64,000 nt of DNA. It comes from Nostoc carneum NIES-2107 (lineage in GTDB: Bacteria; Cyanobacteriota; Cyanobacteriia; Cyanobacteriales; Nostocaceae). Under the pieces are notes generated by a model. The model made no database searches and had not been told where the DNA came from. It worked only from the letters and a program-made list of their open reading frames with translations. Numbering within the stretch: the stretch's first letter is position 1; the number at the start of each line of letters is the position of its first letter. The stretch spans positions 1,240,001 to 1,304,000 of the forward strand of contig AP018180.1 of assembly GCA_002368155.1 (NCBI GenBank), given 5' to 3'. Both the position numbers and the translations under genes were made by a program. This document shows, piece after piece, positions 38,307-52,455 of this stretch.

Positions 38307-38944
38307 AAATACGTACTTTAGAGCAGCTAAGTGATAAGCTGGCAGAAGAACTTGCATGGCGAAAAATAGAGTTATCAGCCTTGAAAGCTTTGATTGATTT
38401 AAAGTCGTTCTCTTCAGGCAAACAAAAGGCGTTACTTCGTAGTGGAATCACTATGCTCTATGCTCACTGGGAGGGATTTATAAAAGTAGCAGCTAATAGT
38501 TATTTAGAATTTGTTGCTATGCAGAGTCTTCCTTATAACAAACTTTCAAACAATTTTATAGCATTGGCAATGAAAGATAAATTAGAGCAAGCAAATCAAA
38601 GTAGTAAAGCAAGTATATATAATGAAGTTGCAGATTTTTTCATGACCAAAATGACTGAGAGAAGTGTAATTAAATATGAAAATAGAATTACAACTTCCAA
38701 TTTGTCATCATCAGTTTTCAAAGAGATAGTATGTATGCTAGGTCTAGATTATAGTTTCTATGAATCAAAAGAAGTATTAATAGACGAAAGGTTACTCAAA
38801 AAAAGAAATATGATTGCTCATGGCAATTATCTTGATATAGATGAAAAACAATATGATGAACTACACATACAGATAGTATCTATTATGGATAATTTTCGTA
38901 ATGAAATAGATAATTGTGCATCTACAAAAAAATATTGTTCTTAG
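38303..38944 (+). CDS. HEPN-domain protein, MAE_28990/MAE_18760-like RNase family
   Basis: A 213-residue helical protein matching the MAE_28990-type HEPN family of cyanobacterial toxins and defence effectors. The catalytic RNxxxH motif is present and intact (R168-N169-M-I-A-H173). The middle has LLRSGITMLYAHWEGFIKVAANSYLEF, typical of the family. HEPN proteins of this kind are usually metal-independent RNases. It overlaps the DUF262 gene by four bases and has no ribosome site of its own, which supports co-expression. DUF262 could be its sensor or inhibitor; this is inference. It is convergent with the recQ fragment. Confidence 0.85.
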   Translation: MKIRTLEQLSDKLAEELAWRKIELSALKALIDLKSFSSGKQKALLRSGITMLYAHWEGFIKVAANSYLEFVAMQSLPYNKLSNNFIALAMKDKLEQANQSSKASIYNEVADFFMTKMTERSVIKYENRITTSNLSSSVFKEIVCMLGLDYSFYESKEVLIDERLLKKRNMIAHGNYLDIDEKQYDELHIQIVSIMDNFRNEIDNCASTKKYCS

Positions 38945-39012: not shown

Positions 39013-39507
39013 TTAATTGCTACAATTGTCGCAATGTCCACAACGCCAGTTAGCGGCTTCTTTGGCAAAACCAAAGGCGGTTAACAAAAACTGCCAGCGG
39101 CATTGTTTTGTATGCAAATACTGATTCATGTGCTTGGCGGCTTGCAATTGAGTTGTTGATTGCTTGTCTACCCCTGGCTTGATGACGTAATGGAAAGGGT
39201 CAAGCCAGTTTAATTGTCCACTACTGTGGAGTAAAGACAATGCCATTGCACCATCGGGGAATTGTCGCGCTACTGTATTTACGTCCCCTTGTTTCGGCAG
39301 TTTTTTAGCAAGTTGCTGCGCTGTTTGTTGTTGCGATCGCATTTGTTGTTCAAAAAACTGCTGTCTTTGTTTGTCTTCTGGATCTAACCAGCCTGTAGGT
39401 TCACTTACCAATGTCAGCGCTTCTGCTGGTTTCCCATCTCTCCCAGCGCGGCCAATTTCTTGCACATATTCGGAAAGTAGTAGCGGCGCGTGAAAGTGAA
39501 TTACCCA
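39013..39507 (-). pseudogene. recQ: recQ, 3' part (split by insertion)
   Basis: C-terminal 164 residues of a RecQ-family DNA helicase. It begins with WVIHFHAPLLLSEYVQEIGRAGRDG (helicase motif VI) and ends with the zinc-binding region (CRWQFLLTAFGF, CGHCDNC). The N-terminal part, ending in GINKPDVR, is at 51505-52455 on the same strand. Joining the two gives KPDVR-WVIHFH in frame, the normal RecQ sequence, so the 12-kb insertion has split an otherwise intact gene between codons. An ATG at 39552 lies within the element and could allow expression of this fragment, but it has no helicase core. Confidence 0.92.
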
Positions 39508-39550
39508 GCCATTATTATCTTTAGCTAAAATTCTACAATCCATATTCAGC

Positions 39551-39592
39551 AATCACTTTACTTTGTTGATATGTTTACAAAGTAAAGTGATT
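39551..39592. repeat. Perfect 16-bp inverted repeat near the left end of the element
   Basis: Arms AATCACTTTACTTTGT and ACAAAGTAAAGTGATT with a 10-base spacer. The core TTTACTTTGT also occurs at 51470-51478 near the right end, so this is a likely recombinase arm-binding site. It could also be a transcription barrier. Confidence 0.7.
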
Positions 39593-39754
39593 TCTTCATA
39601 GTGTTACAAGAATTTGCTTAAGGAATACGTCTGTTTCGTCAAGCAAATAACTGAGCAGCCATGTCTGCGGATTTATCAGCTACAACACCGATTCAGTATT
39701 CATAATCATGACGAAAAAACCAAGTTCATGTCTTGCAAAAAAAGAATGTAATGC

Positions 39755-42472
39755 CTATGATTTGTCTTGAGATTTTGCTAAGATGCCAGAAATTATTTTA
39801 TTATCTTCTATCGTAAAACTACTAAGAACCTCTTGTTGATAATGCTCAGGAGAAGGTTGCATTAAAGATGCCTCTGCAATTAATCTGCTTGTTGTATAAC
39901 TTATGTCTTCGTAAGCTTCAGTAGAAAGCTGGTGAATTGTTTCTTGAAGATAAATAATTTTTTTGATCTTTTTAAGTAGTGGTTGGACTTCAGACCAGTC
40001 ATCAGGTACAGGCACAAGCAAACCTTTTATATGTTGTGGTTCTAAATGCTGTTGAACTGTGCCATACTCATTTCTAAGCATTTGAGCTTGACCAAAGATA
40101 GTTTGCAAAAAGTAATAAACATATAAACGAAGATTCTCATCTTCAATTCTCAATCTAATTAGATCATCGCTTACTATAGCTCTATCATGCTTACTTGTTA
40201 TATAACTAACTCTACCTATTGTCCCAGACCTAGTAATAACAATATCACCTTTATACAAACGTATAGTCTCAATAATTTTAAGTTGGTTTTTAGTAGCCTT
40301 AGATAAATCAACTAATTTGGCACTATCAGATTTTTCTTGAAGAATAGCTGAAGGAGTGTAATATTTTTCTGTGAATTCATTATTTTTGCGCTCAACAATT
40401 AAATTTTCACTCTTAAACCAAGGTCCTTTATAAATTTTGATATTCCTATCAATCTGGAATAAAGACATTACTGACCAATTACGCAAACCATCAATTGATT
40501 CTATTTGTTTGATAGTTTCGTTGAAACTTGGCAAAAACCATTGAGGATTAATATTTAGTTGTTCATTTAGTTGGCTAAAATTTACAGAAAAATGATAGGC
40601 ACTATCTTGGAAATTGTCTTTTTTAAATTCTGTATAAGAATTTAATATTTCATCTAAATCATGGTCAAGCTCATCTATAGCCTTACCTGTTTTATCGTCT
40701 GTTTTATAGATAGGTACTCCTTCACTATCTTGCCCAACCTTATTTGAAATCGCCATGAAAATCTTATAATCTTCTAGTGGCGTTTCTTCTTGGTTATATT
40801 TTCTAGCTAATATTAAACAAGTCCGAACACCAGTATGAGGTTGAAATGTATTTTTATGGCAATTAATAACAGCTAAAAGTTGGCATTTTGAAAATAAAAT
40901 TTTTCTTAGTGGTAAATATGTCTGAGTATCAAGAAAGCTTTTTGGCATAACTATACCAAGCTTACCATTAGGAGCAAGCCAGTCTATGCATCTCTCAAAA
41001 AAAAGCATTTCAGGTGGAACGCCATCAGACATTATTTCATCATTATTTGCAGGGTTTTCTCCTACCACTGATCGTTTTTTTGCACATTCAAAACGCTGTA
41101 GAACTTCTAATTGAGTTATCCTACCTTCCCCAGTACCCGCAAATGGAGGATTAGTTAGTATTATTGTTGGAGTTTCTTTAGTACATTCAGCAATAATCGT
41201 TTTTTCAAAATTAGAGTAATCTCCAAGACTATCTCCTTGCGTCATTCCTGCATGACCATCACCATTTAAAATCATGGCAGTTTTGGCTACTTTTACAAGC
41301 CGTTTATTAATTTCTACCATGAATAATCGCTTTCTATGCCTATCTAATTGTCGCTCTTTAGCGATTTTTCCACTTGAACCTTCAAGTATTTTTTTTCTAA
41401 CATATCGCATGACTCCAGTTAGAAAGCCACCAGATCCACCTGCTGGATCAAGAATAATATCTGAATATTGTGGTTCTAATGCTTTAACTAAAAAATCTAT
41501 AATAAGTCGATTTGTAAAAAACTGTCCCTTTTGGCGCTTGAGATATGAAGCAGTATATTGCTCATAAGCATAACCCATAATGTCCCAATCATCAGAATTA
41601 GCAAAGTTAGATAGCAATTGATAACTCTGGAGTTCAATTACGACATCACAGATTGCTCTTGCACCAACTGTGATTTCTTCATGTTCGCTAAACACTTGTG
41701 GATTAAAAGCTTTGGCTTCCTTAAATAGTGCTTGAATACGCTCCGCAACCCTATTTCGTCCATTTTCATCATTATATTCTTCAGAAGAACAATAAAACTC
41801 TGGAAGATTTGTGTCTTTCTCCTCATCCATTGCTTTTGCAAGAATAATTCGTACCATATCCATTGTTAAATCTTCTTCATCTCCTTCAAACCCACGTCCA
41901 TGCAACTTATTATGGCAACGTCGAAGAAGACCTTTTATATCTTTTGGACGCTTAAGATTGTTTTTGTCTATCCGTCCTAATGCATCCCATCTTTCTCCCT
42001 TTTTTGGTAATCCAATCCAAGGTATTAGTTCATTATTGGGTTCTGAAATACGTCGATAGTAGTTGATTTTATCTTCATCACCATAGCTACTAAACCAAAC
42101 ACCTCCTGATGCACTTGTGTTATATATGTAAGAGACTAATTGATTATAACCTTCCGTTACATTGGGAGCTTTACATTCAATAATAAAAGCGATATTACCT
42201 TGGTCTTTAGCTAAACAAGCTCTTTTAGAATTATAAACTACAATATCTGCTCTAATTGTTCTACCACTACTATCTTTAAGCTCTTGATGCCCATAATATA
42301 TAGCAACTTCTCTTCTCATAAAATCTTTAGGATATTGATATTCAAAATGCAATATCCTTAAAAATTTTTGTCTAACAAACTCTTCTGGGGTTGGCTCTAA
42401 TTCTTGATTACTTATAAAATCATTTATTTTTTTATTATCATTCAAAATAACATCAAAATCTGTTGCGATCAT
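39755..42472 (-). CDS. Single-chain restriction-modification protein (HsdR_N nuclease, N6-adenine methylase, TRD), type IIG-like
   Basis: A 905-residue protein combining three functions. Residues about 25-140 form an HsdR_N-type PD-(D/E)XK nuclease with D76 in RADIVVY and E99-C-K101 in IIECKAP. Residues about 285-620 are an N6-adenine methyltransferase with motif I DPAGGSGG (342-349) and catalytic NPPF (441-444). The C-terminus (about 665-870) resembles an HsdS target recognition domain (KGDIVITRSGTIGRVSY, QHLEPQHIKGLLVPVP). No helicase is present, so it is type IIG-like rather than type I. ATG 42472 is chosen; the longer frame would need a TTG at 42514. It stands alone at the left end of the element. 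Confidence 0.86.
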   Translation of the reverse strand: MIATDFDVILNDNKKINDFISNQELEPTPEEFVRQKFLRILHFEYQYPKDFMRREVAIYYGHQELKDSSGRTIRADIVVYNSKRACLAKDQGNIAFIIECKAPNVTEGYNQLVSYIYNTSASGGVWFSSYGDEDKINYYRRISEPNNELIPWIGLPKKGERWDALGRIDKNNLKRPKDIKGLLRRCHNKLHGRGFEGDEEDLTMDMVRIILAKAMDEEKDTNLPEFYCSSEEYNDENGRNRVAERIQALFKEAKAFNPQVFSEHEEITVGARAICDVVIELQSYQLLSNFANSDDWDIMGYAYEQYTASYLKRQKGQFFTNRLIIDFLVKALEPQYSDIILDPAGGSGGFLTGVMRYVRKKILEGSSGKIAKERQLDRHRKRLFMVEINKRLVKVAKTAMILNGDGHAGMTQGDSLGDYSNFEKTIIAECTKETPTIILTNPPFAGTGEGRITQLEVLQRFECAKKRSVVGENPANNDEIMSDGVPPEMLFFERCIDWLAPNGKLGIVMPKSFLDTQTYLPLRKILFSKCQLLAVINCHKNTFQPHTGVRTCLILARKYNQEETPLEDYKIFMAISNKVGQDSEGVPIYKTDDKTGKAIDELDHDLDEILNSYTEFKKDNFQDSAYHFSVNFSQLNEQLNINPQWFLPSFNETIKQIESIDGLRNWSVMSLFQIDRNIKIYKGPWFKSENLIVERKNNEFTEKYYTPSAILQEKSDSAKLVDLSKATKNQLKIIETIRLYKGDIVITRSGTIGRVSYITSKHDRAIVSDDLIRLRIEDENLRLYVYYFLQTIFGQAQMLRNEYGTVQQHLEPQHIKGLLVPVPDDWSEVQPLLKKIKKIIYLQETIHQLSTEAYEDISYTTSRLIAEASLMQPSPEHYQQEVLSSFTIEDNKIISGILAKSQDKS

Positions 42473-43055
42473 AATAATAGAAAGATATAGGAATAATCGA
42501 TAAAAAATTGCCAAGAGAAATTACATGATAGCTATATTTAAGGATATTAAAAGTAGAGAAAATACTGAGACAAAATCAAAACTATATAAAAAGTACGTAA
42601 TTATGCTTAAAATATAAAAATTGATGTAAGCTTATTAACTAATCTATGGCTACAAGAATGAAAAAGGTTCCACATTCGCTCTTAAGCTAATCAGCATTTA
42701 AGTTACATCAATCCAAGGCTTCAGTCTTTACTACCAGCGAATTAGCCTGGAAAAGAATGACGATTAGCTTAGAGCTTATACACTAAAGTCCGGTTAACCT
42801 GAAATTGAAGCTATGTTCAAAGCTAGAATTAATTGTTTTATTAATTCATTTCTAGTTATTAGAAATTGAAATTATTAGTATTTCCTTGCTCTTTGAGGCA
42901 AATGATGTAAACAATATTTTAAGTAGGGATTGCTTTTAGCAAACTTATACCCTTTACTTACGCCGAATAAATTCCCATATTTTAAATACAAATGTACTAA
43001 TAAAGAGCTAAAATGATATATATGTCACATTGCTGGCGTTATTTTGGGGGCTATT
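42473..43055. other. Intergenic region within the element, no gene seen
   Basis: About 580 bp, AT-rich, between the divergent RM-like gene and the small membrane protein gene. It must contain promoters for both. No RNA gene or long inverted repeat was recognised. Confidence 0.5.
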
Positions 43056-43502
43056 ATGAAAGCTAAACTTGAAAAATGGTATCCTCTATTTTTCGGTACA
43101 ATATTTGCAATTTTATGTTCTTATTTTGTTGCAAAAAATCCCTCATTAAATTCTTTGAAAGAATTATTTGCTGCTACTACTACGCTTAGTGGCATCGTAA
43201 TAGGCTTTCTCGCTACCGCAGTATCAATACTATTAACGATAATCAAATCTTATATTATGCAACAAATAATCAATGGACAAGTTTATGATAAACTAATCAA
43301 TTATTTCATGAATGCTATCCAATGGTTATTTATCTTAACCTTATTAAGTTCTATAGGTATATTCCTTGATATAACTCAATTTAATCAGCCATTTAGATCA
43401 CTAGCTTTTGGTATATGGGCTTTATGTTTTATGACTTCTGGATTAAGTTCTTATAGGGTTATACACCTATTTACTTCAATATTACGTGCCGCTAAACATT
43501 AA
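43056..43502 (+). CDS. Small four-helix membrane protein, RexB-like in size and topology
   Basis: A 148-residue protein with four hydrophobic segments: about 9-27, 42-66, 88-108 and 117-137. The second carries SGIVIGFLATAVSILLTII. Size (lambda RexB is 144 residues), number of helices and loop pattern match RexB, the ion-channel-like effector of the RexAB phage exclusion system, but sequence identity is low by eye. ATG 43056 is preferred to the TTG at 43044. Its stop overlaps the stop of the convergent gene at 43499 by four bases, so the two are a tight tail-to-tail pair. The function is inferred. Confidence 0.6.
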   Translation: MKAKLEKWYPLFFGTIFAILCSYFVAKNPSLNSLKELFAATTTLSGIVIGFLATAVSILLTIIKSYIMQQIINGQVYDKLINYFMNAIQWLFILTLLSSIGIFLDITQFNQPFRSLAFGIWALCFMTSGLSSYRVIHLFTSILRAAKH

Positions 43503-44389
43503 CTGCGAAACATCCGTAGTATTTCAGTTAACCTATTATTCCAAGCTTCTTGTAAAGCTTTTTGTCGTATGTCATAAGGAATATTGCGATTTCTCCCAGG
43601 GTTATTTACATTAATGCTTTCACGCATTTTATCTTTTAACAAATCAATAACTGTCTTGTTATCTTCATCGTCAGATCCTGAAACTTTTAAAGTTGTAATT
43701 TTATTGTGCTTTTGCTGAGAAGCTCTTAGTAGGCTTTGAGCAGTTTCAACTACTTTGTCAACAAGTAAAGACGGCTGTTTTTTCTTAACTGAAGTTTTAA
43801 CTTCTATATTTATAGAAGGGGCTTGGAAAATTTCTGCTAAATGAATCATTTCCTCAACAGCATTATCATTGTCACCAAAAATATTCATATTCGATAAGCT
43901 AGCAATTTTAATCTCAAAATTTATTACTTCTTTTAATTTCACAAGTTTTTGCAATGCACTCATTTGAAGTACAGGATCTAAACTAATTGATGTGTTACCT
44001 TCTCCAAATATTTCAAAATACCTTGCAAAATCCCCTGGCGAGACTCCATTTCTATTAGATTGAATTGCAAGAATGCGAGTAGCAGGATGATAAATAAATG
44101 CTGATTGTTCTCCTATACCTTCATCATGCGCTAATTGAATATCTTCTATTTCACCAGCAAGACTTCCCTTGACAGGTAAATCATTCATGCGTAACCGAAC
44201 AATTTCGCCTTCCCAAGTATCTTGCCATCCATATTGAATACTGAATATATAGATATGGTGCAGTCGCACTTCTTTAGTTCTGTGATGTGGTAAGGTATTA
44301 TCTATTTTTTGTAAAATTTCTTCAAAAGATAAAGCTGAAGGCTGAGAAATTTTAACTTGATAGAAATCTACATTTAGTTTTTTTGACAT
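43499..44389 (-). CDS. RexA-like sensor candidate
   Basis: A 296-residue soluble protein of unknown function. Segment 84-127 (QLAHDEGIGEQSAFIYHPATRILAIQ..., then GVSPGDFARYF) and segment 135-160 (SLDPVLQ...KLKEVINFEIKIA) align in order with the middle of lambda RexA (ADDESLG...FLFV, then a TxxDLTDFL segment, then IEPLMRG and TVKVEAKLP). Length is also similar (RexA 279 residues). The alignment was made from memory of RexA and is only suggestive. The C-terminal third is charged and lysine-rich. It is convergent with, and overlaps by four bases, the small membrane protein gene. The tRNA-like sequence lies just upstream. Confidence 0.6.
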   Translation of the reverse strand: MSKKLNVDFYQVKISQPSALSFEEILQKIDNTLPHHRTKEVRLHHIYIFSIQYGWQDTWEGEIVRLRMNDLPVKGSLAGEIEDIQLAHDEGIGEQSAFIYHPATRILAIQSNRNGVSPGDFARYFEIFGEGNTSISLDPVLQMSALQKLVKLKEVINFEIKIASLSNMNIFGDNDNAVEEMIHLAEIFQAPSINIEVKTSVKKKQPSLLVDKVVETAQSLLRASQQKHNKITTLKVSGSDDEDNKTVIDLLKDKMRESINVNNPGRNRNIPYDIRQKALQEAWNNRLTEILRMFRS

Positions 44390-44440
44390 ATCAACACAAG
44401 GTATAAAAACAAAATTTGTATTACGATAGTTTCAGGTTTG

Positions 44441-44509
44441 TGGACGGCAGGGGAAATCGAACCCCTCAGCACTGAGTTTAGGAGACCCGTCTGGCACCAA
44501 GCGCCGCCC
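44441..44509 (-). tRNA. tRNA-like sequence, anticodon CCT (Arg), degenerate
   Basis: Read on the minus strand, GGGCGGC and GCCGTCC form a 7-bp acceptor stem with one G-T pair. An anticodon arm GGGT-CTCCTAA-ACTC gives anticodon CCT, and a T-arm AGGGG-TTCGATTT-CCCCT follows. Two defects are visible: the D-arm is too short (only about 13 bases between acceptor and anticodon stem) and the T-loop has eight bases instead of seven. The CCA end is not encoded. At 69 bases it may be a decayed tRNA-Arg, a functional tRNA mimic or a decoy. It lies between the regulator and RexA-like genes on the same strand. Confidence 0.55.
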
Positions 44510-44522
44510 ATGAACTTGTCAG

Positions 44523-44546
44523 GCAGTGAGGTAATTACCCCACTGC
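44523..44546. repeat. Palindrome between the regulator gene and the tRNA-like sequence
   Basis: Arms GCAGTGAGGTAA / TTACCCCACTGC with one mismatch and no spacer, five bases after the stop of the regulator gene. It could form a processing or termination hairpin ahead of the tRNA-like sequence; no T-run follows. Confidence 0.5.
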
Positions 44547-44551
44547 TTTGG

Positions 44552-45688
44552 CTAAAATTTTTCAGATTCTAGTTCAGCTATTAATTCCTCAGCTTCTTTG
44601 CCGCCTAATTCGCACAATTCTTGCTGTATAGTGCTGACTTTGCGACGAAGTACCAGCAATTCCTTAATCTTAGCCATGATTTCTCCAGCCATTGGTAAAT
44701 CTTTGTCTAAGGGTGATGATGCGGAACTTTTTTGCTGACTAGTTTCGGATTTCATAGAGATGTTTGCATTACTGTCTTCTAAGTTTTCGTTAAAATGTTT
44801 TCCCGATATCAGTTCGCCTAAAGATGTTAACTGGGTATCCGAAGATTTGACACTATTTGACGATGGGATTACAGATGCGTCATCATGATAGTGATTTCCA
44901 TTTTGTGGCTCACTCAATTTACCATTTGAATTCTGGTCGTTATCATTTAGCAGAAAGTTAATTAATTCAGCATTAATCCCATTAACAGGAAAATAAACAT
45001 ATCCACTCCTGCCCTGACCGTTGGTACTACCTACTTCCCTGCAAAGCCAACCTAGCTCCATCAGATGCTTCAGGTGTTTATTGACTGTAGTATTATCCAA
45101 GCCAAGCTTACTGGCAATTTCGGTTGACCTAATGCCAGTATCTGGAATCAGCTTCAAGATGGATTGGATAGTAGGATGAAACTCTAATGCTAGATGTTTT
45201 AAGTGGAAGAAGAACAGATCTCTTTCTTCTGTAATATCTTCGCCTAGATTAGTTCCAGACAAAACTGATTCTAGTAAATTCTCAGCTACAGAATTGAGTA
45301 ACTTCAAATCCTTGCTGTATTTGAACTCTATTGCATCATCAATAGCCTCATTAGAACAATCATTTGCAAGAGAATACAACTGCCTTGCTTTAACTGCTCC
45401 TACGCCTGCGCTAACTTCTCTATAAGTTACGTATTTTTCGACAACAAGCTCTTTAATTTGTTTTGATACAGCTGACCTAGAAACGTGTATTGTTTCAGAG
45501 ATTTCCTTGGCACTGCTTTCACCTCTGATTGCCAAAAACTGCAAAATTGCCAGCTTTATTTCTGTCAATTTTGCCAGCTCAATAATTTTAGGCGTTCTTT
45601 CAACCTTTTGACGATGCAATTGGAGTAGGGATGTCCATTGACTTTGCAGGACAGACTCTTCTAGACTTATATCGATAAGTCTAGACAT
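44552..45688 (-). CDS. Two-winged-helix transcriptional regulator with C-terminal coiled coil
   Basis: A 378-residue protein. A first winged helix (about 38-112; KLAILQFLAIRGESSAKEISETIHVSRSAVSKQIKELV) and a second (about 175-235; STEIASKLGLDNTTVNKHLKHLMELGWL) are both MarR/ArsR-like. A long Ser/Asn-rich linker (about 250-330) and a C-terminal coiled coil (about 335-375) follow. An excellent AGGAGGTGAG ribosome site precedes ATG 45688. Two inverted repeats lie immediately upstream and may be its operator or attenuator. It is probably the control gene for the cargo downstream on the same strand. No family name is offered. Confidence 0.75.
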   Translation of the reverse strand: MSRLIDISLEESVLQSQWTSLLQLHRQKVERTPKIIELAKLTEIKLAILQFLAIRGESSAKEISETIHVSRSAVSKQIKELVVEKYVTYREVSAGVGAVKARQLYSLANDCSNEAIDDAIEFKYSKDLKLLNSVAENLLESVLSGTNLGEDITEERDLFFFHLKHLALEFHPTIQSILKLIPDTGIRSTEIASKLGLDNTTVNKHLKHLMELGWLCREVGSTNGQGRSGYVYFPVNGINAELINFLLNDNDQNSNGKLSEPQNGNHYHDDASVIPSSNSVKSSDTQLTSLGELISGKHFNENLEDSNANISMKSETSQQKSSASSPLDKDLPMAGEIMAKIKELLVLRRKVSTIQQELCELGGKEAEELIAELESEKF

Positions 45689-45723
45689 AAGCTCACCTCC
45701 TAAATGGGTTAGGGCTTTAGTCT

Positions 45724-45787
45724 TCCACTCTAAGTAAATCGAGTGTAGTGGGCAGGAAATTCACATCACCTGTTTACTTAGAGTGGA
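45724..45787. promoter_or_regulatory. 15-bp inverted repeat upstream of the regulator gene
   Basis: Arms TCCACTCTAAGTAAA (45724-45738) and TTTACTTAGAGTGGA (45773-45787) are perfectly complementary across 34 bases. With the regulator start at 45688, this is a plausible autoregulatory operator. Confidence 0.55.
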
Positions 45788-45789
45788 GA

Positions 45790-45849
45790 TTTGATTGATT
45801 AGAGAAAGCCTTCCTAATTATTTAGGAAGGCTTGCTCTAATTAATCAAA
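45790..45849. repeat. 60-bp near-perfect hairpin
   Basis: Two 28-base arms with a TTAT loop; the inner 12 pairs AAGCCTTCCTAA / TTAGGAAGGCTT are perfect and the outer part has one bulge-type mismatch and one G-T pair. Only two bases separate it from the 15-bp inverted repeat, so the two could form alternative structures in a leader RNA of the regulator gene. The 45850-45959 stretch beyond is featureless. Confidence 0.65.
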
Positions 45850-45959
45850 ATAACATGGAAGAATCTGAAACAGATCGCGCAAATTTTTAAAATCGCGAAA
45901 TTATTTGCATTAAGTTTTATTTACTTTCGCATTTTTATTTGCTGAAGTTCCTCAAAGGG

Positions 45960-46310
45960 TTATGTATCAACGATTTCACTGAACTCTACCCACTCATCTT
46001 GAGCAGTAATAACGTACTGAACACCTTTGTCACAGATGGATGCTTTGACTAGCCCTAGTGATTGTGCGAGATTGAACCACTCATTAAACGCAGATAACTC
46101 TTGCTTTTTCCTATAATCCTGATTTGGCAACCAAGAATTCTTGATAGCTGCCACTGAAAAGCCAGCCATATTTGGGACTTTTGTTTTGGATAACGCTTCC
46201 TTGAGAGTGGCAATACCTTGAAGAATCACTTTATTAGGCACAGACTCAATTATCTTTTTTAAGGTAGAGTTAATCTCGATACTTAATTCATCAAACTCTG
46301 ATTTGACTCG
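45960..46310 (-). pseudogene. Remnant of a second TnpC-like gene (C-terminal part only)
   Basis: The open frame from GTG 46241 encodes 93 residues, but the same frame continues upstream to a TGA at 46311-46313 without any ATG. Its translation aligns along its length with the C-terminal third of the intact TnpC-like protein at 47783: RVKSEFDELSIEINSTL against RIRDELDALSINLTNTL, then AIKNSWLPNQ against AIDAAWRPNQ, then FNEWFNLAQSLGLV against FLQWYDLAREQGVV. The HTH and coiled-coil N-terminus is missing and no ribosome site is seen. It is therefore most likely a decayed tnpC paralogue; expression of the short frame cannot be excluded. Confidence 0.75.
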
Positions 46311-46342
46311 TCAAGAGCCTTGTCAGTCCCTGTCTCCAAGCA

Positions 46343-47581
46343 TTAAGCAGGATTTACTTCTGTATTTTGAGACTCGGATAGCAATGAAGTATGCCCTGGC
46401 AGTAAACTCCTATCTCTATTTGTGATTTCTTCGTACCATTTCTGTCTTTCATCTTTATATTTGTTGACCCATATATCAGGGTTACAAATTTCTAAGCAAA
46501 TTTGTTTGATTTTTTCTTGTACATAAACAAATTGATTTCCAATTCTACCTTGTTCATCTTTGTAGCTAGCCTTTATAGCTGGATATATTTTATTCCAAAT
46601 CAGATCATCAAGTCTTAAAGCATCTACATATGCATCGAAATTATTTTTTTCACTTAAATCTTTTTGAATTTCGTTTAATATTTTTACTCCCTCTTGAGTA
46701 ATTCCGCATGGAGAAACAAACAAAAATACCAATGTTTTTCCTTTTCCAGTAGGACTGAAGCGATTATAGGCTAAATTAATGTATCTTTTAACATAATATA
46801 TGTTTGATATATCTTCATGATTAATATAGTTAGATTTAAGTTCACAAATAATAGTCGCTTGCTCTATATCTTTAAATATTGGAAGGGATGTCCTAAACAA
46901 AAAATCATATCTTCTAGTTTTGTTCTTTGATGTAACTTCGTAGTTTCTTTGTGCTATTTGTCGCCAAGGACTTAAATCTGCATAACTTGCAAGCGAAATC
47001 ACCCATTGTTCTAGTAAATCTTCATTGCCTGCCCAACCATATCCATTTTGAATATCTTCTGTAATTTCTGTAATTGGATTTTCTCGCGAACCATAGGGGA
47101 GATTTTTGAAAGACAATAAAGATTCTAGCTTTGAAATAGATTTATCACTTGGGAGTAAACTAGGAATCTTTTCAATTAGGTCTAAAGTAGTATTTCTTAC
47201 CTGTTTTGCTACTTCAGAATCTCGCAAAATGAAACCCATACGCATTACTGCACGGGGAGGAAATAAATTTACTGAAGGGATTGAGGAGGTCAGGTTCATA
47301 ATGAACCTGACCTCATGCAAAGTTTTGCCACGAATTAGTTTTACTCCATCTGATACAAATTCATCTCTGTGGCGTTTAAAGTTAGTATCGATAGTATCCT
47401 CAGAAACTTCATAAAACTCTGCTACTTGTTTAGAAGTTAACCATCCTGAATTTTGCCAGACAGCAAAAAATACTTGTTTTACTTTGTTTAATATATCTTC
47501 TACTTCTTCTGTTGATATTGCTAACAGTTGATTGCTTCTTGCTGTTCTGGACTCAACAAAAATATTAGGAGATAATTCCAT
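46343..47581 (-). CDS. Antirepressor-like DNA-binding protein with a PD-(D/E)XK-like domain
   Basis: A 412-residue protein. The N-terminal half (about 25-140) has a helix-turn-helix (GWLTSKQVAEFYEVSEDTI) and a segment (LFPPRAVMRMGFILRDSEVAKQVRNTTLDLIE) resembling phage antirepressor/KilA-type regulatory proteins. The C-terminal half (about 180-350) has RRYDFLF (D226), then IICELK (E247, K249), the spacing of a PD-(D/E)XK nuclease core. No family assignment is certain. It is the first gene after the tnpABC terminator and is read in the same direction. Roles as a conditional nuclease or an RM-like regulator are possible. Confidence 0.7.
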   Translation of the reverse strand: MELSPNIFVESRTARSNQLLAISTEEVEDILNKVKQVFFAVWQNSGWLTSKQVAEFYEVSEDTIDTNFKRHRDEFVSDGVKLIRGKTLHEVRFIMNLTSSIPSVNLFPPRAVMRMGFILRDSEVAKQVRNTTLDLIEKIPSLLPSDKSISKLESLLSFKNLPYGSRENPITEITEDIQNGYGWAGNEDLLEQWVISLASYADLSPWRQIAQRNYEVTSKNKTRRYDFLFRTSLPIFKDIEQATIICELKSNYINHEDISNIYYVKRYINLAYNRFSPTGKGKTLVFLFVSPCGITQEGVKILNEIQKDLSEKNNFDAYVDALRLDDLIWNKIYPAIKASYKDEQGRIGNQFVYVQEKIKQICLEICNPDIWVNKYKDERQKWYEEITNRDRSLLPGHTSLLSESQNTEVNPA

Positions 47582-47727
47582 GCTAGTAAATTTAATTTTA
47601 ATAAATAAATTTATGCTATTTCATAGCCATCTGTTATTACCTCAGTTTAAATACGCAAACAAATCTTCTGTCTGAGGATTTAATAGTAAGCAATATACAA
47701 AAAATCCACAGTAGAAACTATTCAATC

Positions 47728-47759
47728 AAAAAAGCTTTATCGGAAGGTAAAGCTTTTTT
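47728..47759. terminator. Bidirectional terminator after the tnpABC operon
   Basis: Perfect 12-bp arms AAAAAAGCTTTA / TAAAGCTTTTTT with an eight-base loop, 24 bases after the stop of the tnpC-like gene. It separates the transposition genes from the cargo. Confidence 0.88.
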
Positions 47760-47782
47760 GTTGTCTGTTATTAAATTTCTGC

Positions 47783-48703
47783 TTACTTCACCATTCTGGA
47801 TCGTAAATAGTCAAGTGTCCATTTTGAGGATTTTTCCTCAAATGGAACCCACTGACCAGTATTTTCTTGAACCCAATAACAACCATCGTCATCCTTTCGA
47901 CTTCCAATGACGACTCCTTGCTCTCGTGCCAAGTCATACCATTGAAGAAATATGTCAACCACATTATTTTCTCCAAGGGGTTGATTTGGTCGCCAAGCAG
48001 CATCAATTGCACTAGCCAACCATCCTCCTGGGTTTCTAATTAATTGATGTTGTAGTTGCTCTTTTAGTGCTGCGATCGCAGCTAAGACAACTTCTTCATT
48101 GGAGTTCCGTATTTTGGAAGTAAGAGTGTTAGTCAGGTTAATACTTAGGGCATCTAGTTCATCCCTAATTCTGTCAGTTATTTCCCCTTGTGACCTTTTA
48201 GATGTAGATGACGAAACCTTAGATTGCTCAGACAATGAGTGTTTAGGCGACGGAGAACGACACATTTCCAACTCTTGCTTTAGTCTTGCATTTTCAGCCT
48301 CAAGTCTCTCTAGTCGATGTTCTATCTCAGATGCTTGAAGAATTCGACCATAAATTGCTTCATGCTGATCGCGCAAACCTCTATTCTCAGCTTCAATTTT
48401 TTTGATTTTTTCCTTGAGGGTTCTAATGATTGCGTCTTTGGAAGCATCCGAGGTTTTTTGTTTAGGCGGGACTTTCTCAGTCCTTGAATAATTTACCCTT
48501 AAATGCTCTATTCGTTCCTTAATTTCAGGTTCCTTATAAAGCCATGCTTTACTAACACCAGAGACTTTAGCGACTGTATTAAAGTTAATAACTTGTTTTT
48601 CTTTGATTAGTTGCTGAATTCCCTGCTCTACTTTCTCAAAAGTCTCTTGACGTTTCCTTTGAGCGTTATCAACCAATCCTTCGACATTACGCTTGACTGT
48701 CAC
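47783..48703 (-). CDS. tnpC: TnpC-like accessory protein of Tn554-type element (DUF6262-like)
   Basis: A 306-residue protein with an N-terminal HTH (about 35-65; INFNTVAKVSGVSKAWLYKEPEIKERIE), a coiled coil (about 90-150) and a C-terminal domain (about 215-300; NPGGWLASAIDAAWRPNQ, GQWVPFEE). The N-terminal half matches the DUF6262/TnpC proteins found third in Tn554-like operons. The C-terminal domain is additional compared with the short (about 125-residue) staphylococcal TnpC. It starts with GTG, with GGAGG nine bases upstream, and overlaps the end of tnpB by 17 bases. Confidence 0.82.
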   Translation of the reverse strand: MTVKRNVEGLVDNAQRKRQETFEKVEQGIQQLIKEKQVINFNTVAKVSGVSKAWLYKEPEIKERIEHLRVNYSRTEKVPPKQKTSDASKDAIIRTLKEKIKKIEAENRGLRDQHEAIYGRILQASEIEHRLERLEAENARLKQELEMCRSPSPKHSLSEQSKVSSSTSKRSQGEITDRIRDELDALSINLTNTLTSKIRNSNEEVVLAAIAALKEQLQHQLIRNPGGWLASAIDAAWRPNQPLGENNVVDIFLQWYDLAREQGVVIGSRKDDDGCYWVQENTGQWVPFEEKSSKWTLDYLRSRMVK

Positions 48704-50282
48704 TTAAGTCTACCTCCAATGCTGAAATAATTTTTTCTAGATTGGTTTTGACCTTCTGATTCATCTCAACTTGGCGCATCCAGCCATTAGCTTCTGCTTT
48801 TTGCAGAATCTTGTTAGTCTGTTCTAGTTGCTGCTTGTGTTCTGATAAATAGTCAGAAGTGGTTCTAAAGTGGGTGCAAGTTAGACACGCGTTGGCGTGA
48901 GGGCATCCCTGAGAAATACTAGGTAAAGCACAAGATCCGTTTGGCAATGCTTGAGCTTGAATACTCCGCTTAAACCACTGCAAATCAACCACATCTGCTT
49001 CTATGTTGTTTGGCTCAACAACTTGTCCTGAAATATTGACAATCTTGCCCTGAAATTTAGCAATTTCTTCTTTCATCGTTTGGTCGTGGATGTGGGCATA
49101 GACAGCAGTCATGTTTGGAGATTCATGCCCTAAATAACGCTGAATGATATGCTGTGGCACACCATTGTTAATCATTCGTGTTCCTACGGTGTGGCGAAAT
49201 TGATGTGGTAGGAAATGCCAAAGTTTTCCTGAAGCATCACAAATTTTATGCTTCTCTGCTAATTTATTAAGATAACGGTTAAAAGCTCCTCGACCCATTG
49301 GTTTTGGGGAAGGTGTAAAGTCACCCTTACAACCTCCTCCTTCGTTGGCACAAAAGACATACTCAAACTTGACATTCAAGTTGTCCTTAATGTAGCGTTG
49401 CTGCTCTTGAATTACTCGAACAACCTCTCTAGAAACAGGAATAGTAATTTCCTTCTTCATTTTGAATTGGTAATACCGCAGAAACCAGTCCCCAGCTTTG
49501 TCCTGCAACAGGCAATCGGGTTTCAAATGGAGTAACTCGGAGATCCGCATACCACATTCTTGCAGAACCAATACCATTCTCATGACTGCTTCAGGAAGCT
49601 CGTCTAAATGCTCGTTAAGTTGATGCATTACGTCTTCTGGAATGTATCGAGGTACTGATTTAGGTCGTTTAGGAAAATCTTCATCACGAATTAAATACCT
49701 GGATATTTCTAGCCATTGATTTTGGTAGCTCATCTCCAAGAACCCTCGAATTCCACCAATGGTATGGCATCTAGTAGAAATCGAGAGTTTTGTACCTGCT
49801 AAATGAGCCAAAAAATCAATTATGACTGAACGATCTAATTCTTGTGGCGAAATATTCGGGTAAGATTTAGCAAGGAATCGAGAAAGTCTTTTTATTGCCA
49901 GTAGCTTTTCGGAACCCGACGAAAAACTGAGAGTACTAAGCGTAAATTTAATGTATCGTTTAGCTGCATCCAAAATCCAAGGTTGACTAATATCCGAGAA
50001 AGTTAATCTGTAGCAATACTTGCCAACACCTGGAGAAATCCCTAAATTACGGCAATCCCAAACATCTTTTTTGTATTCAGCTTCAGGATTTACAATGTAC
50101 TGTGTTTTGTCAGGATTGTGCGTGAAGTGGCGATTACAATTTTTGCATAAATAAATTTGATGTCCTTTTTTGTCCTTTCGCCTTTTAACGAACTTCTCAC
50201 TCTCACAGTGATGACAAGTAATCTCTTTTTTCTCAGTCTGTACAATGGTCAATGAATTCCGGTGTTTCGGTTGAGGAGTCAT
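48687..50282 (-). CDS. tnpB: TnpB-like tyrosine recombinase with zinc-ribbon N-terminus
   Basis: A 531-residue site-specific tyrosine recombinase of the Tn554 TnpB type. N-terminal zinc ribbon: C23, C26, C46 and C49. A SAM-like core-binding domain is followed by the catalytic domain, with R246 (CGMRISELL), H360-Q-F-R363 (HQFRHT), H386 (LGHES) and nucleophile Y395 (VYAHIH). A C-terminal cysteine cluster (SCALPS...CPHANACLTC, about 455-478) is also typical. ATG 50282 is chosen; the longer frame starts with TTG 50303. It overlaps tnpA by 50 bases and tnpC by 17, so the three are translationally linked. Confidence 0.9.
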   Translation of the reverse strand: MTPQPKHRNSLTIVQTEKKEITCHHCESEKFVKRRKDKKGHQIYLCKNCNRHFTHNPDKTQYIVNPEAEYKKDVWDCRNLGISPGVGKYCYRLTFSDISQPWILDAAKRYIKFTLSTLSFSSGSEKLLAIKRLSRFLAKSYPNISPQELDRSVIIDFLAHLAGTKLSISTRCHTIGGIRGFLEMSYQNQWLEISRYLIRDEDFPKRPKSVPRYIPEDVMHQLNEHLDELPEAVMRMVLVLQECGMRISELLHLKPDCLLQDKAGDWFLRYYQFKMKKEITIPVSREVVRVIQEQQRYIKDNLNVKFEYVFCANEGGGCKGDFTPSPKPMGRGAFNRYLNKLAEKHKICDASGKLWHFLPHQFRHTVGTRMINNGVPQHIIQRYLGHESPNMTAVYAHIHDQTMKEEIAKFQGKIVNISGQVVEPNNIEADVVDLQWFKRSIQAQALPNGSCALPSISQGCPHANACLTCTHFRTTSDYLSEHKQQLEQTNKILQKAEANGWMRQVEMNQKVKTNLEKIISALEVDLSDSQA

Positions 50283-51381
50283 TTGATATTTCTCTCTGTT
50301 CAAGATATTCCTGATATGCTATTTTCATATCCTCGTTATTAACGTGGACATAAGTATCAATCGTGGTTTGAATACTGGCATGTCCTAATCTCTTCTGGAC
50401 ATAAGCCATTTCCATGCGTTCACGGATTAGTTCTGTAGCGTGAGTATGTCTAAGCATGTGAGGATGAATAGCAATACCAGTTTTCCTTTTGAGGCGATTG
50501 AATAAATCCATTACATTGCTATAACTCATAGGTGATCCAATTTTTCCATCCCAAAGGTTTACAAATACATAGTCACTGAGGTCATCCCCCAGTATTTCCA
50601 TGAATTCATCTTGTAGGTATTTACTGTAGAGTCCCATCAATTCCTTGGAAACATCAACATTGTAGGAAGAGGCGGTTTTAGCACGAGCGCCATTAGCATT
50701 GTTGTCTCTGGGAACAATTTTGATAACATTATCCCAAGATTGAATATCTTCATGCCTTAGCCCTAACAATTGCCCAATTCGCATACCACTTTCGTGTAAC
50801 AAGCAAATTAGGAACTTATCTCTTATTCGATTACAGGAATTAATAAGTTGTCTTACTTGCTCCGTGGAAACTGTTTTGGGATGACGTTTTGGCTCTTTGA
50901 GTTTGAGCAAACGAGTTCTAACAGGTTTACTTTTTGTGATGTGATGCAGGAAACTTTTGTACCTTCTACCTGGCATAATTTGCGATCGATAGAGAGGAAT
51001 ATGTGGTACTTTACCAGTTTTTTCATGAAAATCGTAAAGCATACAGACTGAAGTCAAAATGACATTTACAGTTGATTCTGTTCGCTTTGCTTCTTGCTCT
51101 TGAATTGATAAAACACCTTGAGGACTTGGATTTCTTAGCCATGCCATAAATTCAGCAAGTTCAATTACACTAACTTGTGTCCAATCAAAGTTAGATACCT
51201 GGAGATACTCCCAGTAGAGTTTGAGGTGGCAGGCATAAGATCTAATTGTGTTTGGTGATCGCTCAATACTTTCTAGATAAGCTAAAAACTGCCGAATAGG
51301 TTCTACTGGCAAGTAATCGCTCCCTACTACTACCCAAGTGATTTTTTCACTTCCAGGGATACGTACCCTTTGAACTTTCAT
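50233..51381 (-). CDS. tnpA: TnpA-like tyrosine recombinase
   Basis: A 382-residue tyrosine recombinase corresponding to Tn554 TnpA (361 residues). The N-terminal core-binding domain (about 24-130; VEPIRQFLAYLESIERSPNTIRSYACHLKLYWEYL) precedes the catalytic residues R201 (SGMRIGQLL), K235, H308-x-x-R311 (HMLRHT), H334 (LGHASI) and Y344 (DTYVHV). It is the first gene of the operon, starting about 125 bp inside the right end, with four ACTTTGTAG-like sites directly upstream that may bind the recombinase and control the operon. Confidence 0.9.
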   Translation of the reverse strand: MKVQRVRIPGSEKITWVVVGSDYLPVEPIRQFLAYLESIERSPNTIRSYACHLKLYWEYLQVSNFDWTQVSVIELAEFMAWLRNPSPQGVLSIQEQEAKRTESTVNVILTSVCMLYDFHEKTGKVPHIPLYRSQIMPGRRYKSFLHHITKSKPVRTRLLKLKEPKRHPKTVSTEQVRQLINSCNRIRDKFLICLLHESGMRIGQLLGLRHEDIQSWDNVIKIVPRDNNANGARAKTASSYNVDVSKELMGLYSKYLQDEFMEILGDDLSDYVFVNLWDGKIGSPMSYSNVMDLFNRLKRKTGIAIHPHMLRHTHATELIRERMEMAYVQKRLGHASIQTTIDTYVHVNNEDMKIAYQEYLEQREISNDSSTETPEFIDHCTD

Positions 51382-51383
51382 TC

Positions 51384-51484
51384 TACTTTGTAGACTTTAA
51401 ATACTTTTTAGACTCACTGCTTTTTAATAGTCTACGAAGTTTAGTTATACCTTGTCAAGTTGTTGTTGTTTACTTTGTAGAATT
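51384..51484. promoter_or_regulatory. Cluster of TACTTTGTAG-like sites at the right end of the element
   Basis: TACTTTGTAG occurs at 51384-51393 and 51471-51480, the variant TACTTTTTAG at 51402-51411, and an inverted variant CTACGAAGT at 51432-51440. The last direct copy runs into TTGTAGAATT, the right-end inverted repeat. They lie between the tnpA start and the recQ junction, where recombinase binding sites and the tnpA promoter are expected. Confidence 0.6.
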
Positions 51485-51504
51485 ATTTTAAGAGGCTATT
51501 GTTT

Positions 51505-52455
51505 TCGCACATCAGGCTTGTTAATCCCCATGCCAAATGCACAGGTACAAACCACAAATGGTATTTTACCACCTAACCAGCTGGCTTCTACAGCACGGCG
51601 TTCTGTGGCACTCAGTCCAGCATGATAACTAGCTGTGGCGTAACCCATCTCTGCTAACCAAGCTGCTAAATTCTCGCTATCTCTGCGGGTGCGGACATAG
51701 ATTAATCCAGCTTGTTGCTGTCTATTTTGAATAAATCTGACTAATTTTTGCTTTCTACCTTTGGGAGTCCAAGCGATGCAGACGTTGAGATGCAGATTTG
51801 GACGGTAGGGATTGAGGCGGTAAATATCGGGTTGTTGTAATTGTAAAACTGAGGCAATAATTTTTTGCGCTAAAGGGTCAGCCGTCGCCGTAAAAGCTGC
51901 CACGCTAATTTTGCTTCCAGGTGGTTTTGATTTCAGCAATGCCGATCGCACTGCCCCTAATCTGCGATAAGCTGGTCGAAATGTTTCACCCCACTGCACT
52001 AAACAATGGGCTTCGTCCAAAATTAAACCGTTAATCTGCAATTGTGGTTGACACAATTTTTCCCACACAGGCTGACTGAGTAAAGTTTCTGGCGATAAAT
52101 ACAATAATCTGAGTTTGTTTTGTGCCAATGCTTGCAGAGTTAAGCGACGTTGGGATGAAGGTAGTTCGCTATGTAAAAGTGCTGCACTTAAGTTTAGCTG
52201 GCGCAGTTCTTGTACTTGGTTTTCCATCAATGCTACTAACGGCGAAACTACCAAAGTCAATCCTGTTTGCAGCAGTGCCGGAAGTTGAAAACAAATCGAC
52301 TTACCTCCACCTGTAGGCATGATAATTAACGCATCTTTTCCTGCCAATAAACTGCTGACTATTTCACCCTGTGGGGGACGAAAATTGTCATAACCCCAAA
52401 TTTTTTTAAAAGTATTAAGGACTGCGTTCCAATAAGTGGTTCCTATTTGATTCAT
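51505..52455 (-). pseudogene. recQ: recQ, 5' part (split by insertion)
   Basis: N-terminal 317 residues of a RecQ-family helicase. Motif 0 (YDNFRPPQGEIV), Walker A (MPTGGGKS), DEAH box (LDEAHCLVQWGETFRPAYRRLG), motif III (AFTATAD) and motif V (AFGMGINKPDVR) are all present. Translation then runs KQ-stop into the element. The remaining motif VI and zinc domain are 12 kb away at 39013-39507. The truncated product lacks the arginine finger region of motif VI, so it should be inactive unless the element excises. Confidence 0.92.

What the first reader, a model, noticed from the sequence alone, without database searches (positions are those of the whole stretch)
39013..52455. A 12-kb Tn554-like element splits recQ exactly between codons
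The two recQ parts are on the same strand, stop at complementary points (GINKPDVR and WVIHFHAP) and join in frame. The element carries three overlapping recombination genes next to one junction. This parallels the nifD, fdxN and hupL elements of heterocystous cyanobacteria, which are excised during development, but uses a Tn554-type recombinase trio and targets a DNA repair helicase gene. Excision would restore RecQ; retention would leave the cell without this RecQ.
Basis: partly seen in the sequence, partly recalled or inferred. Interest (0 to 1): 0.9.

Follow-up and report, generated by a model that had tools for sequence, protein, structure and literature searches.

The report
Swappable-target transposon splitting recQ
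A 12-kb mobile DNA element has landed cleanly inside a DNA-repair helicase gene of a cyanobacterium, and comparison with its relatives suggests that one exchangeable part of one of its enzymes decides which DNA-handling gene it will cut into.

Summary
In detail: recQ is split at window 39508/51506 and the halves join in frame; 30 of 30 relative recQ loci fetched are uninterrupted there. The break lies inside an Arg codon (CG|C), not between codons. The insert is 11,991 bp plus a 6-bp core and carries a Tn554-type set: tyrosine recombinases TnpA and TnpB, and TnpC (DUF6262). The heterocyst-excision parallel is not supported: the flanking hexamers differ (TGTGCG/TAATGG), the same recQ site is occupied in hosts such as Xenococcus, and the related SEs make circles without an empty site. 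It is better read as a site-specific transposon. Of 32 related cyanobacterial elements, 21 sit in three DNA-processing genes: recQ, comM/yifB and a PLD-HhH nuclease, two sites each. TnpB residues 1-380 track the target; TnpA, TnpC and the TnpB tail mainly follow another, backbone history. The window's element is a comM-type backbone with a recQ-type TnpB N-part, so that part most likely selects the target and is exchanged as a cassette. With predictions fixed beforehand, 3 of 3 within-clade ones were right and 4 of 4 sister-clade guesses wrong. Tsy transposons (TnsF, comM) are a published precedent for a tyrosine-recombinase target selector.

The parts
51506..52455 (-). recQ 5' part; runs 10 bases into the element and stops (R-K-Q-stop); lacks the motif VI region (motif name recalled)
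51506..51511 (-). attL hexamer TGTGCG = native recQ bases
51382..51505 (-). left (tnpA-side) end: AAAACAATAGCC...CTACAAAGTAAACAACAACAA, similar in relatives
50233..51381 (-). tnpA, tyrosine recombinase; 35% over 95% to a Staphylococcus aureus tnpA (annotated 'transposase A for Tn552-II family'); follows the element backbone rather than the target
48687..50303 (-). tnpB, large tyrosine recombinase with N-terminal zinc ribbon; R253, H367-R370, Y402 (motif recalled); residues 76-534 44% to a record annotated 'Tn554 family transposase B'
49164..50303 (-). TnpB residues 1-380: proposed exchangeable target-selector module
47783..48703 (-). tnpC, DUF6262 (residues 8-115) with a C-terminal extension absent from short homologues; follows the backbone
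46343..47581 (-). cargo: ORF6N-like stretch (below Pfam's cut-off), match to PADLOC PDC-M59A (E 6e-16)
45960..46241 (-). cargo: 93-aa protein related to the TnpC C-terminal extension (34%, E 4e-13 for the single comparison)
44552..45688 (-). cargo: protein with two winged-helix (MarR/ArsR-like) domains
43499..44389 (-). cargo: DUF6731 protein
43044..43502 (+). cargo: 152-aa protein, hydrophobic by eye, no Pfam family
39755..42514 (-). cargo: fused HSDR_N - N6 methyltransferase - specificity domain (similar to MAD2/MAD5, below NCBIfam's cut-offs), possible phage-defence gene
39515..39620 (-). right end with inverted CACTTTACTTTG...CAAAGTAAAGTG and terminal GCTAAAGATAA (common form in relatives GCTATAGATAA)
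39509..39514 (-). attR hexamer TAATGG, not native to recQ; read as footprint of the previous donor site
39013..39508 (-). recQ 3' part (motif VI region, name recalled, and zinc-binding domain)

Best explanation
A Tn554-related, site-specific transposon integrated into the motif-V region of the short RecQ gene. Inferred mechanism: TnpA, with TnpC, handles the element's own ends and forms a circular intermediate; TnpB binds the target and joins in strand exchange over a 6-bp core. The target's hexamer stays at the tnpA side (attL); the hexamer carried from the previous donor site ends up at attR. The N-terminal ~380 residues of TnpB set the target (here codons of GINKPDVR-W) and are exchanged between element backbones; the window's element is a comM-type backbone with a recQ-type selector. 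Insertion separates the RecQ parts carrying motifs V and VI and so should inactivate it; a further RecQ-family match is counted for the genome (not itemised there). Shown by sequence: anatomy, empty site, hexamer polarity, target groups, mosaic TnpB. Inferred: activity, circle, selector role, no routine restoration of recQ.
For: Empty site in 30 of 30 relative loci fetched. All three genes have homologues among Tn554-type genes (a TnpB row bears the name 'Tn554 family transposase B'). recQ site A is also occupied in Xenococcus L032, Pantanalinema L035, G508 L079 and G976 L148; recQ Walker A in Kastovskya L033/L080, Nodosilinea L037 and G902 L146. Of 15 elements with both junctions read, hexamers are equal in 5 and unequal in 10; among the unequal, the left one is the closer match to native hexamers in 9 of 10. 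TnpB tree: recQ-A (5 rows), comM Walker A (6), recQ-B (3) and PLD-2 (2) each on one side of a branch; 7 changes over all labels, 'unassigned' counted as a label, against a minimum of 6 and a shuffled mean of 17.7. TnpA 14 and TnpC 15 changes; AU rejects the recQ-A rows as one clade for TnpA (p 3e-9) and TnpC (p 2e-52). TnpB 1-380: 6 changes; TnpB 400-535: 12, with the window's row among comM elements, support 100/98. DNA identity of the window to the N. desertorum comM element is 0.76-0.83 in 150-base windows up to base 1050 of the tnp region, 0.50-0.56 over 1051-1650, 0.78-0.79 again over 2251-2700 (tnpB tail); to the Xenococcus recQ element tnpB 1051-1650 is higher (0.64-0.75) and the rest mostly lower. 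Predictions written: 3 of 3 within-clade right. Experimental precedent: TnsF of Tsy selects comM (PMC10293859, sections 13-14 read).
Against: No transposition, circle or binding data for this family. Four sister-clade predictions (G1041, G922a, G922b as recQ-B; G855b as PLD-2) were wrong, so TnpB kinship predicts the target only within close clades; G902 is a near-copy of Nodosilinea, so of the 3 hits two are really independent. PLD-1 elements are not one clade in the full TnpB tree (2 changes). Support for recQ-A in TnpB 1-380 alone is 66/94 and for recQ-B 82/52 in full TnpB. Target labels are not random on the other trees either: all-label counts as low as observed came up in 1 of 200 shuffles for TnpA, 15 of 200 for TnpC and 0 of 200 for the TnpB tail, so these follow the target weakly rather than not at all. 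In G976 the right hexamer is the closer letter match (4 v 3). 11 of 32 elements have no assigned target.
Confidence: 0.82

Rival explanations
1. Programmed or regulated excision element: the trio excises the element under some condition and restores RecQ, as nifD/fdxN/hupL elements do.
For: Both recQ halves are open and close to relatives (unique changes in the window 9 nonsynonymous/18 synonymous, in four relatives together 20/73; no test run, not clearly different). In 12 of 14 other elements examined both matched halves of the host gene hold no stop. Five of 15 elements have equal hexamers, so excision there would be exact. Hilton et al. 2016 (PMC4874684, Results part 1 and passages seen) list recQ and a PLD gene among genes interrupted by xis-type elements.
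Against: Unequal hexamers in the window; of the 14, Pantanalinema keeps only the last codons of the recQ 5' part and one PLD half (G164) holds a stop; hosts and targets unrelated to heterocysts; SEs leave no empty site (PMC9345347 passages).
Confidence: 0.1
2. Transposon whose site choice is strategic: silencing recombination or transformation genes protects it from being removed by homologous recombination.
For: 21 of 32 elements lie in recQ, comM or a PLD-HhH nuclease. For comM the same idea is in print (PMC11472951 passages, PMC10293859 section 14).
Against: The assigned sites lie in or near conserved motif codons (labels recalled), which by themselves are good landing pads; a further RecQ-family match remains; no phenotype of these genes was looked up.
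Confidence: 0.3
3. Assembly artefact or chimeric contig.
For: Among the genomes searched the window's copy is seen in one genome only.
Against: The window lies on an 8.35-Mb contig; the same site is occupied by related elements in unrelated assemblies with similar ends.
Confidence: 0.01

Closest known systems
Tn554-related elements (Tn554, Tn6674; staphylococci and enterococci)
   Same: tnpA-tnpB-tnpC, two tyrosine recombinases plus a DUF6262-type third protein, no target duplication, 6-bp hexamer copied from the old left flank to the new right side (PMC10214605, passages), fixed target gene.
   Different: Targets recQ/comM/PLD nuclease, not radC; TnpB has an N-terminal zinc ribbon (all 60 best plasmid matches begin at residue 76); TnpC is longer by about 190 residues than the short homologues; cyanobacterial hosts; methyltransferase-type cargo.
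Tsy transposons (YRec-HTH-TnsF; Zoogloea)
   Same: A second, large zinc-finger tyrosine recombinase acts as target selector; comM motif codons as target; both recombinase activities needed (PMC10293859, sections 13-14 read).
   Different: Small HTH protein and GIY-YIG nuclease instead of a DUF6262 TnpC; comM Walker B rather than Walker A; recQ has 0 occurrences in that text. No direct sequence comparison made here.
SEs and GInts
   Same: Tyrosine-recombinase operon at one end, 6-bp footprint (SEs), few selected sites (PMC10214605 and PMC9345347 passages; PMC5385486 abstract).
   Different: Four core genes, one of them Tfp/GinC; SEs mainly in Gammaproteobacteria; SEs leave no empty site, untested here.
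Heterocyst interruption elements (nifD, fdxN, hupL)
   Same: In-frame interruption of a chromosomal gene by an element with its own recombinase; recQ and a PLD gene appear in that survey (PMC4874684).

Membership tests
Tn554-related transposons | Adjacent tnpA, tnpB (both tyrosine recombinases) and tnpC, same strand, near one end | tested here: met
Tn554-related transposons | No target-site duplication; 6-bp core with the native hexamer at the tnpA side | tested here: met
   window left 6, right 3 of 6 letters; left closer in 9 of 10 unequal pairs of the set
Tn554-related transposons | Preference for a particular chromosomal site | tested here: met
   recQ site A in 5 of 32 elements, and these 5 are one TnpB clade
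Tn554-related transposons | Transposition dependent on the three genes | not testable with these tools
   no experiment
Tn554 in the strict sense | Insertion at att554 in radC (recalled; radC and Tn554 occur together in the listing) | tested here: not met
   target is recQ; filed as Tn554-related, not as Tn554
Tsy | YRec + small HTH + zinc-finger TnsF, insertion in comM | tested here: inconclusive
   two recombinases with a zinc ribbon on the larger, third gene differs; no sequence comparison with TnsF made
SE | Four core genes in the order IntA, Tfp, IntB, Srap | tested here: not met
   tnpA overlaps tnpB directly, leaving no gene between them; no search for a Tfp elsewhere was made
Heterocyst-type interruption element | Direct repeats bracketing the element | tested here: not met
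   TGTGCG v TAATGG
Heterocyst-type interruption element | Excision during cell differentiation | not testable with these tools
   no reads or cultures

The most novel reading that the evidence does not exclude
A modular family of transposons that disarm host recombination: one backbone (ends, TnpA, TnpC, TnpB tail) can take up different TnpB N-terminal cassettes, each aimed at conserved motif codons of a different DNA-recombination or DNA-processing gene (RecQ motif V, RecQ Walker A, ComM Walker A, a PLD nuclease HKD motif), so that the element chooses by cassette exchange which host pathway it silences and thereby resists being cured.
Probability: 0.3. Interest if true: 0.82.

Novelty: new variant of a known kind. 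Interest (0 to 1): 0.62.

Why it matters
The exact roles of the two Tn554 recombinases are described as not established (PMC3414803, passages). Here a natural series of chimeras assigns target choice to TnpB residues 1-380 and the rest to the backbone, which is directly testable by cassette swap. It also places Tn554-type elements in cyanobacteria with recQ, comM and a nuclease gene as targets; the listings of the eight literature searches made (open-licence PMC papers only) showed no report of that.

Tried and rejected
Viral contigs gave no relative (0 of 4 pattern hits confirmed). A DNA pattern for the left end with 3 mismatches was uninformative: 122 of 386 genomes matched, nearly all listed sites with 2-3 mismatches, and the reversed-pattern control columns look about as full by eye. 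TnpA as target determinant: rejected. TnpC likewise. Whole TnpB as one unit: rejected, its tail follows the backbone more than the target. Synonymous/nonsynonymous counts of the recQ halves: not informative. Nodosilinea/G902 as an old shared insertion: tnpA 94.5% v recQ flank 87.4% identity, so not shown. Only 7 columns separate recQ-A from comM selectors perfectly; no residue-level claim is made.

Rows dropped: G922b left out of the trees (TnpB broken) and G923 absent from TnpC (not found); G728 and G144 out, G728 out (fragmentary TnpB); Leptolyngbya ULC077 (contig end) and G050 not in any tree. The 32 are hits with tblastn identity of TnpA of 56% or more to the window's; G010 (55.8%) and G051:C16 (55.1%) just miss; a short hit in G099 (60% over 211 residues) was not counted although ULC077 (131 residues) was. 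The TnpB pairs of the AU test were chosen after seeing the TnpA tree; target groups were defined from flanks before the trees. Both junctions were read in 15 of 32 elements; in the others a side lay off the contig, or was not found or not looked for. For G923 only 236 bases before tnpA exist on its contig, so its lack of a target says little.

Full report
Observation. The window belongs to an 8.35-Mb contig of a 9.36-Mb genome. One genome of its family (G164) has a contig of the same length as the Nostoc desertorum record. On the minus strand recQ begins at 52455, reads to GINKPDVR and stops ten bases into foreign DNA; the missing part resumes at 39508 with WVIHFHAP and ends at 39013. A recQ query found a match in 98 of 98 genomes, in some of them by identity only a paralogue. 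In 30 of 30 loci fetched the two sides are adjacent; the junction Arg is kept in 30 and the Trp in 29. The insertion therefore removed nothing. It lies after the second base of the Arg codon, so 'exactly between codons' is nearly but not literally right. The window genome has three matches: two are the halves, the third was counted but not listed.

What it is. Next to the left end lie tnpA (382 aa), tnpB (538 aa) and tnpC (306 aa). TnpA and TnpB are tyrosine recombinases; TnpC has the DUF6262 domain. In plasmid records TnpA aligns at 35% over 95% to a Staphylococcus aureus tnpA labelled 'Tn552-II family'. TnpB residues 76-534 align at 44% to enterococcal and staphylococcal homologues, and one row of the same list is annotated 'Tn554 family transposase B'. 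TnpC residues 5-119 align at 47% to short DUF6262 proteins. Cargo is a fused methyltransferase-specificity protein (MAD2/MAD5-like), a PDC-M59A-like protein, DUF6731, a double winged-helix protein and small ORFs, which suggests, but does not show, phage defence.

Ends and core. Many relatives share the left end (...AACAAYAGC...AAAGTAAACAACAACAA, with variations; in Xenococcus and G728 an extra gene lies between it and tnpA) and the right end (GCTATAGATAA and near forms). Between each end and host DNA lies a hexamer. In the window these are TGTGCG (left, native) and TAATGG (right, foreign). Fifteen elements have both junctions read: hexamers are equal in 5 (Xenococcus, G508, N. desertorum, Baaleninema, G047) and unequal in 10. 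Among the unequal the left is nearer to native hexamers in 9 of 10; G976 is the exception by letters, although its left hexamer still encodes the conserved Arg and the right would encode Ser. This is the polarity reported for SEs and Tn554-related elements, where the target's six bases stay beside the first recombinase gene and the old donor's six bases go to the far side (PMC10214605, passages). It implies that a simple reciprocal excision in this strain could yield either D-V-R-W or D-N-G-W; the frame is kept either way.

Targets. TnpA searches (family 217 genomes; phylum 386; order 388; GTDB contigs; each with its own E-value limit) and a TnpB search (class 388) gave 32 elements with TnpA at 56% identity or more. 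Twenty-one have an assigned target: recQ motif V in 5 (window, Xenococcus, Pantanalinema, G508, G976), recQ Walker A in 3 (Kastovskya, Nodosilinea, G902), comM Walker A in 6 (N. desertorum, G214, Baaleninema, Calothrix rhizosoleniae, G728, G910), a second comM site in 2 (Leptolyngbya ULC077, G855), and two sites in a PLD nuclease with a helix-hairpin-helix-like tail (by eye) in 3 (G004, G164, G1037) and 2 (G047, G100). Motif names are recalled. Eleven are unassigned (G050, G139 twice, G144, G582, G743, G787, G922 twice, G923, G1041). In Pantanalinema only the last recQ codons survive on the left.

Who chooses the target. Trees were built with target labels taken from the flanks. In the first set (20 elements) TnpB grouped by target (all groups but PLD-1) and TnpA mostly did not. 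I then searched by TnpB, built a tree with the 9 new elements before looking at their flanks, and wrote predictions. Within-clade predictions were right 3 of 3 (G976 recQ-A, G910 comM, G902 recQ-B; the last is a near-copy of Nodosilinea). Sister-clade guesses were wrong 4 of 4, and G1037, without prediction, was a PLD-1 insertion. In the full set TnpB (28 rows) needs 7 label changes (minimum 6), TnpA (28 rows) 14, TnpC (27 rows) 15. Shuffled means are 17.4-17.7; counts as low came up in 0, 1 and 15 of 200 shuffles, so TnpA and TnpC are loosely, not closely, tied to the target. AU tests reject the recQ-A elements as one clade in TnpA (p 3e-9) and TnpC (p 2e-52), and reject four backbone pairs as sisters in TnpB (p between 2e-4 and 5e-42).

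Where in TnpB. Sliding identity shows residues up to about 205 and 296-385 more alike within a target group; 206-325 are conserved throughout with little difference for recQ-A; from about 386 on, backbone pairs are more alike. Separate trees agree: residues 1-380 need 6 changes; residues 400-535 need 12 (as low in 0 of 200 shuffles, so some clustering remains) and place the window's element with two comM elements at 100/98. At the DNA level the window's element resembles N. desertorum's comM element through tnpA, drops at the start of tnpB, and returns in the tnpB tail and tnpC; Xenococcus' recQ element is the nearer one over the first part of tnpB. The second change point lies near the conserved stretch with HxxR and the catalytic Tyr (residues 367-402).

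Mechanism and comparison. The picture matches the Tsy transposon, where TnsF, a zinc-finger tyrosine recombinase, selects comM and both recombinases must be catalytically active (PMC10293859, sections 13 and 14 read). I did not compare sequences with TnsF. New here, as far as my search listings reach: recQ and the PLD nuclease as targets of a Tn554-type trio, cyanobacterial hosts, and exchange of the selector part of TnpB between backbones. recQ and a PLD gene are already listed as interrupted genes in cyanobacteria by Hilton et al. (PMC4874684, Results part 1 read and passages seen), there with xis-type elements, the recQ case with a serine recombinase.

Is recQ restored? Not shown. In 12 of 14 other elements examined both matched halves of the host gene are free of stops, and the window's recQ shows no clear relaxation, which fits recent insertion as well as occasional restoration. 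SEs form circles without an empty site (PMC9345347, passages); for Tn554 this is untested (PMC10214605, passages). I give a programmed switch about 0.1.

Why these genes. The assigned sites lie in or near conserved motif codons, natural landing pads; that alone may explain them. That they fall in recombination, transformation and nuclease genes also fits the idea that elements gain by silencing such genes, argued for comM (PMC11472951 passages, PMC10293859 section 14). I leave this at about 0.3.

Noticed in passing
window 37200-38944: A GmrSD-N (NsnA/PD-T4-2-like in PADLOC) and HEPN (MAE_28990-like) gene pair lies just beyond the recQ 3' end; the same pair (69%/75%) lies near recQ in 1 of 30 relative loci (L024), which hold 1.5 kb or less on each side.
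   Followed up: partly
window 45960-46241 and 47783-48703: A 93-aa cargo protein is related to the C-terminal extension of TnpC.
   Followed up: partly
L032:9369-9905 and L128 between left end and tnpA: A similar gene (MerR/HTH-like by eye) on the opposite strand sits between the left end and tnpA in the Xenococcus (recQ) and G728 (comM) elements, which also group together in TnpA and TnpC.
   Followed up: partly
L053 (G051:C16), upstream of tnpA: A more distant TnpA (55%) follows an ORF that by eye resembles an FtsK/HerA-type translocase broken just before its Walker A; not tested.
   Followed up: no
L149, L150, L151: Three elements from G1041 and G922 (two copies) share a flank pattern (TAGTG..TCAA) upstream of the left end by eye; in L151 other recombinase-like matches lie nearby, so they may target other mobile elements.
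   Followed up: no
G035:C1:3099917-3102678: recQ of G035 is split by about 1.3 kb at query residues 256-261, a different site; the insert was not looked at.
   Followed up: no
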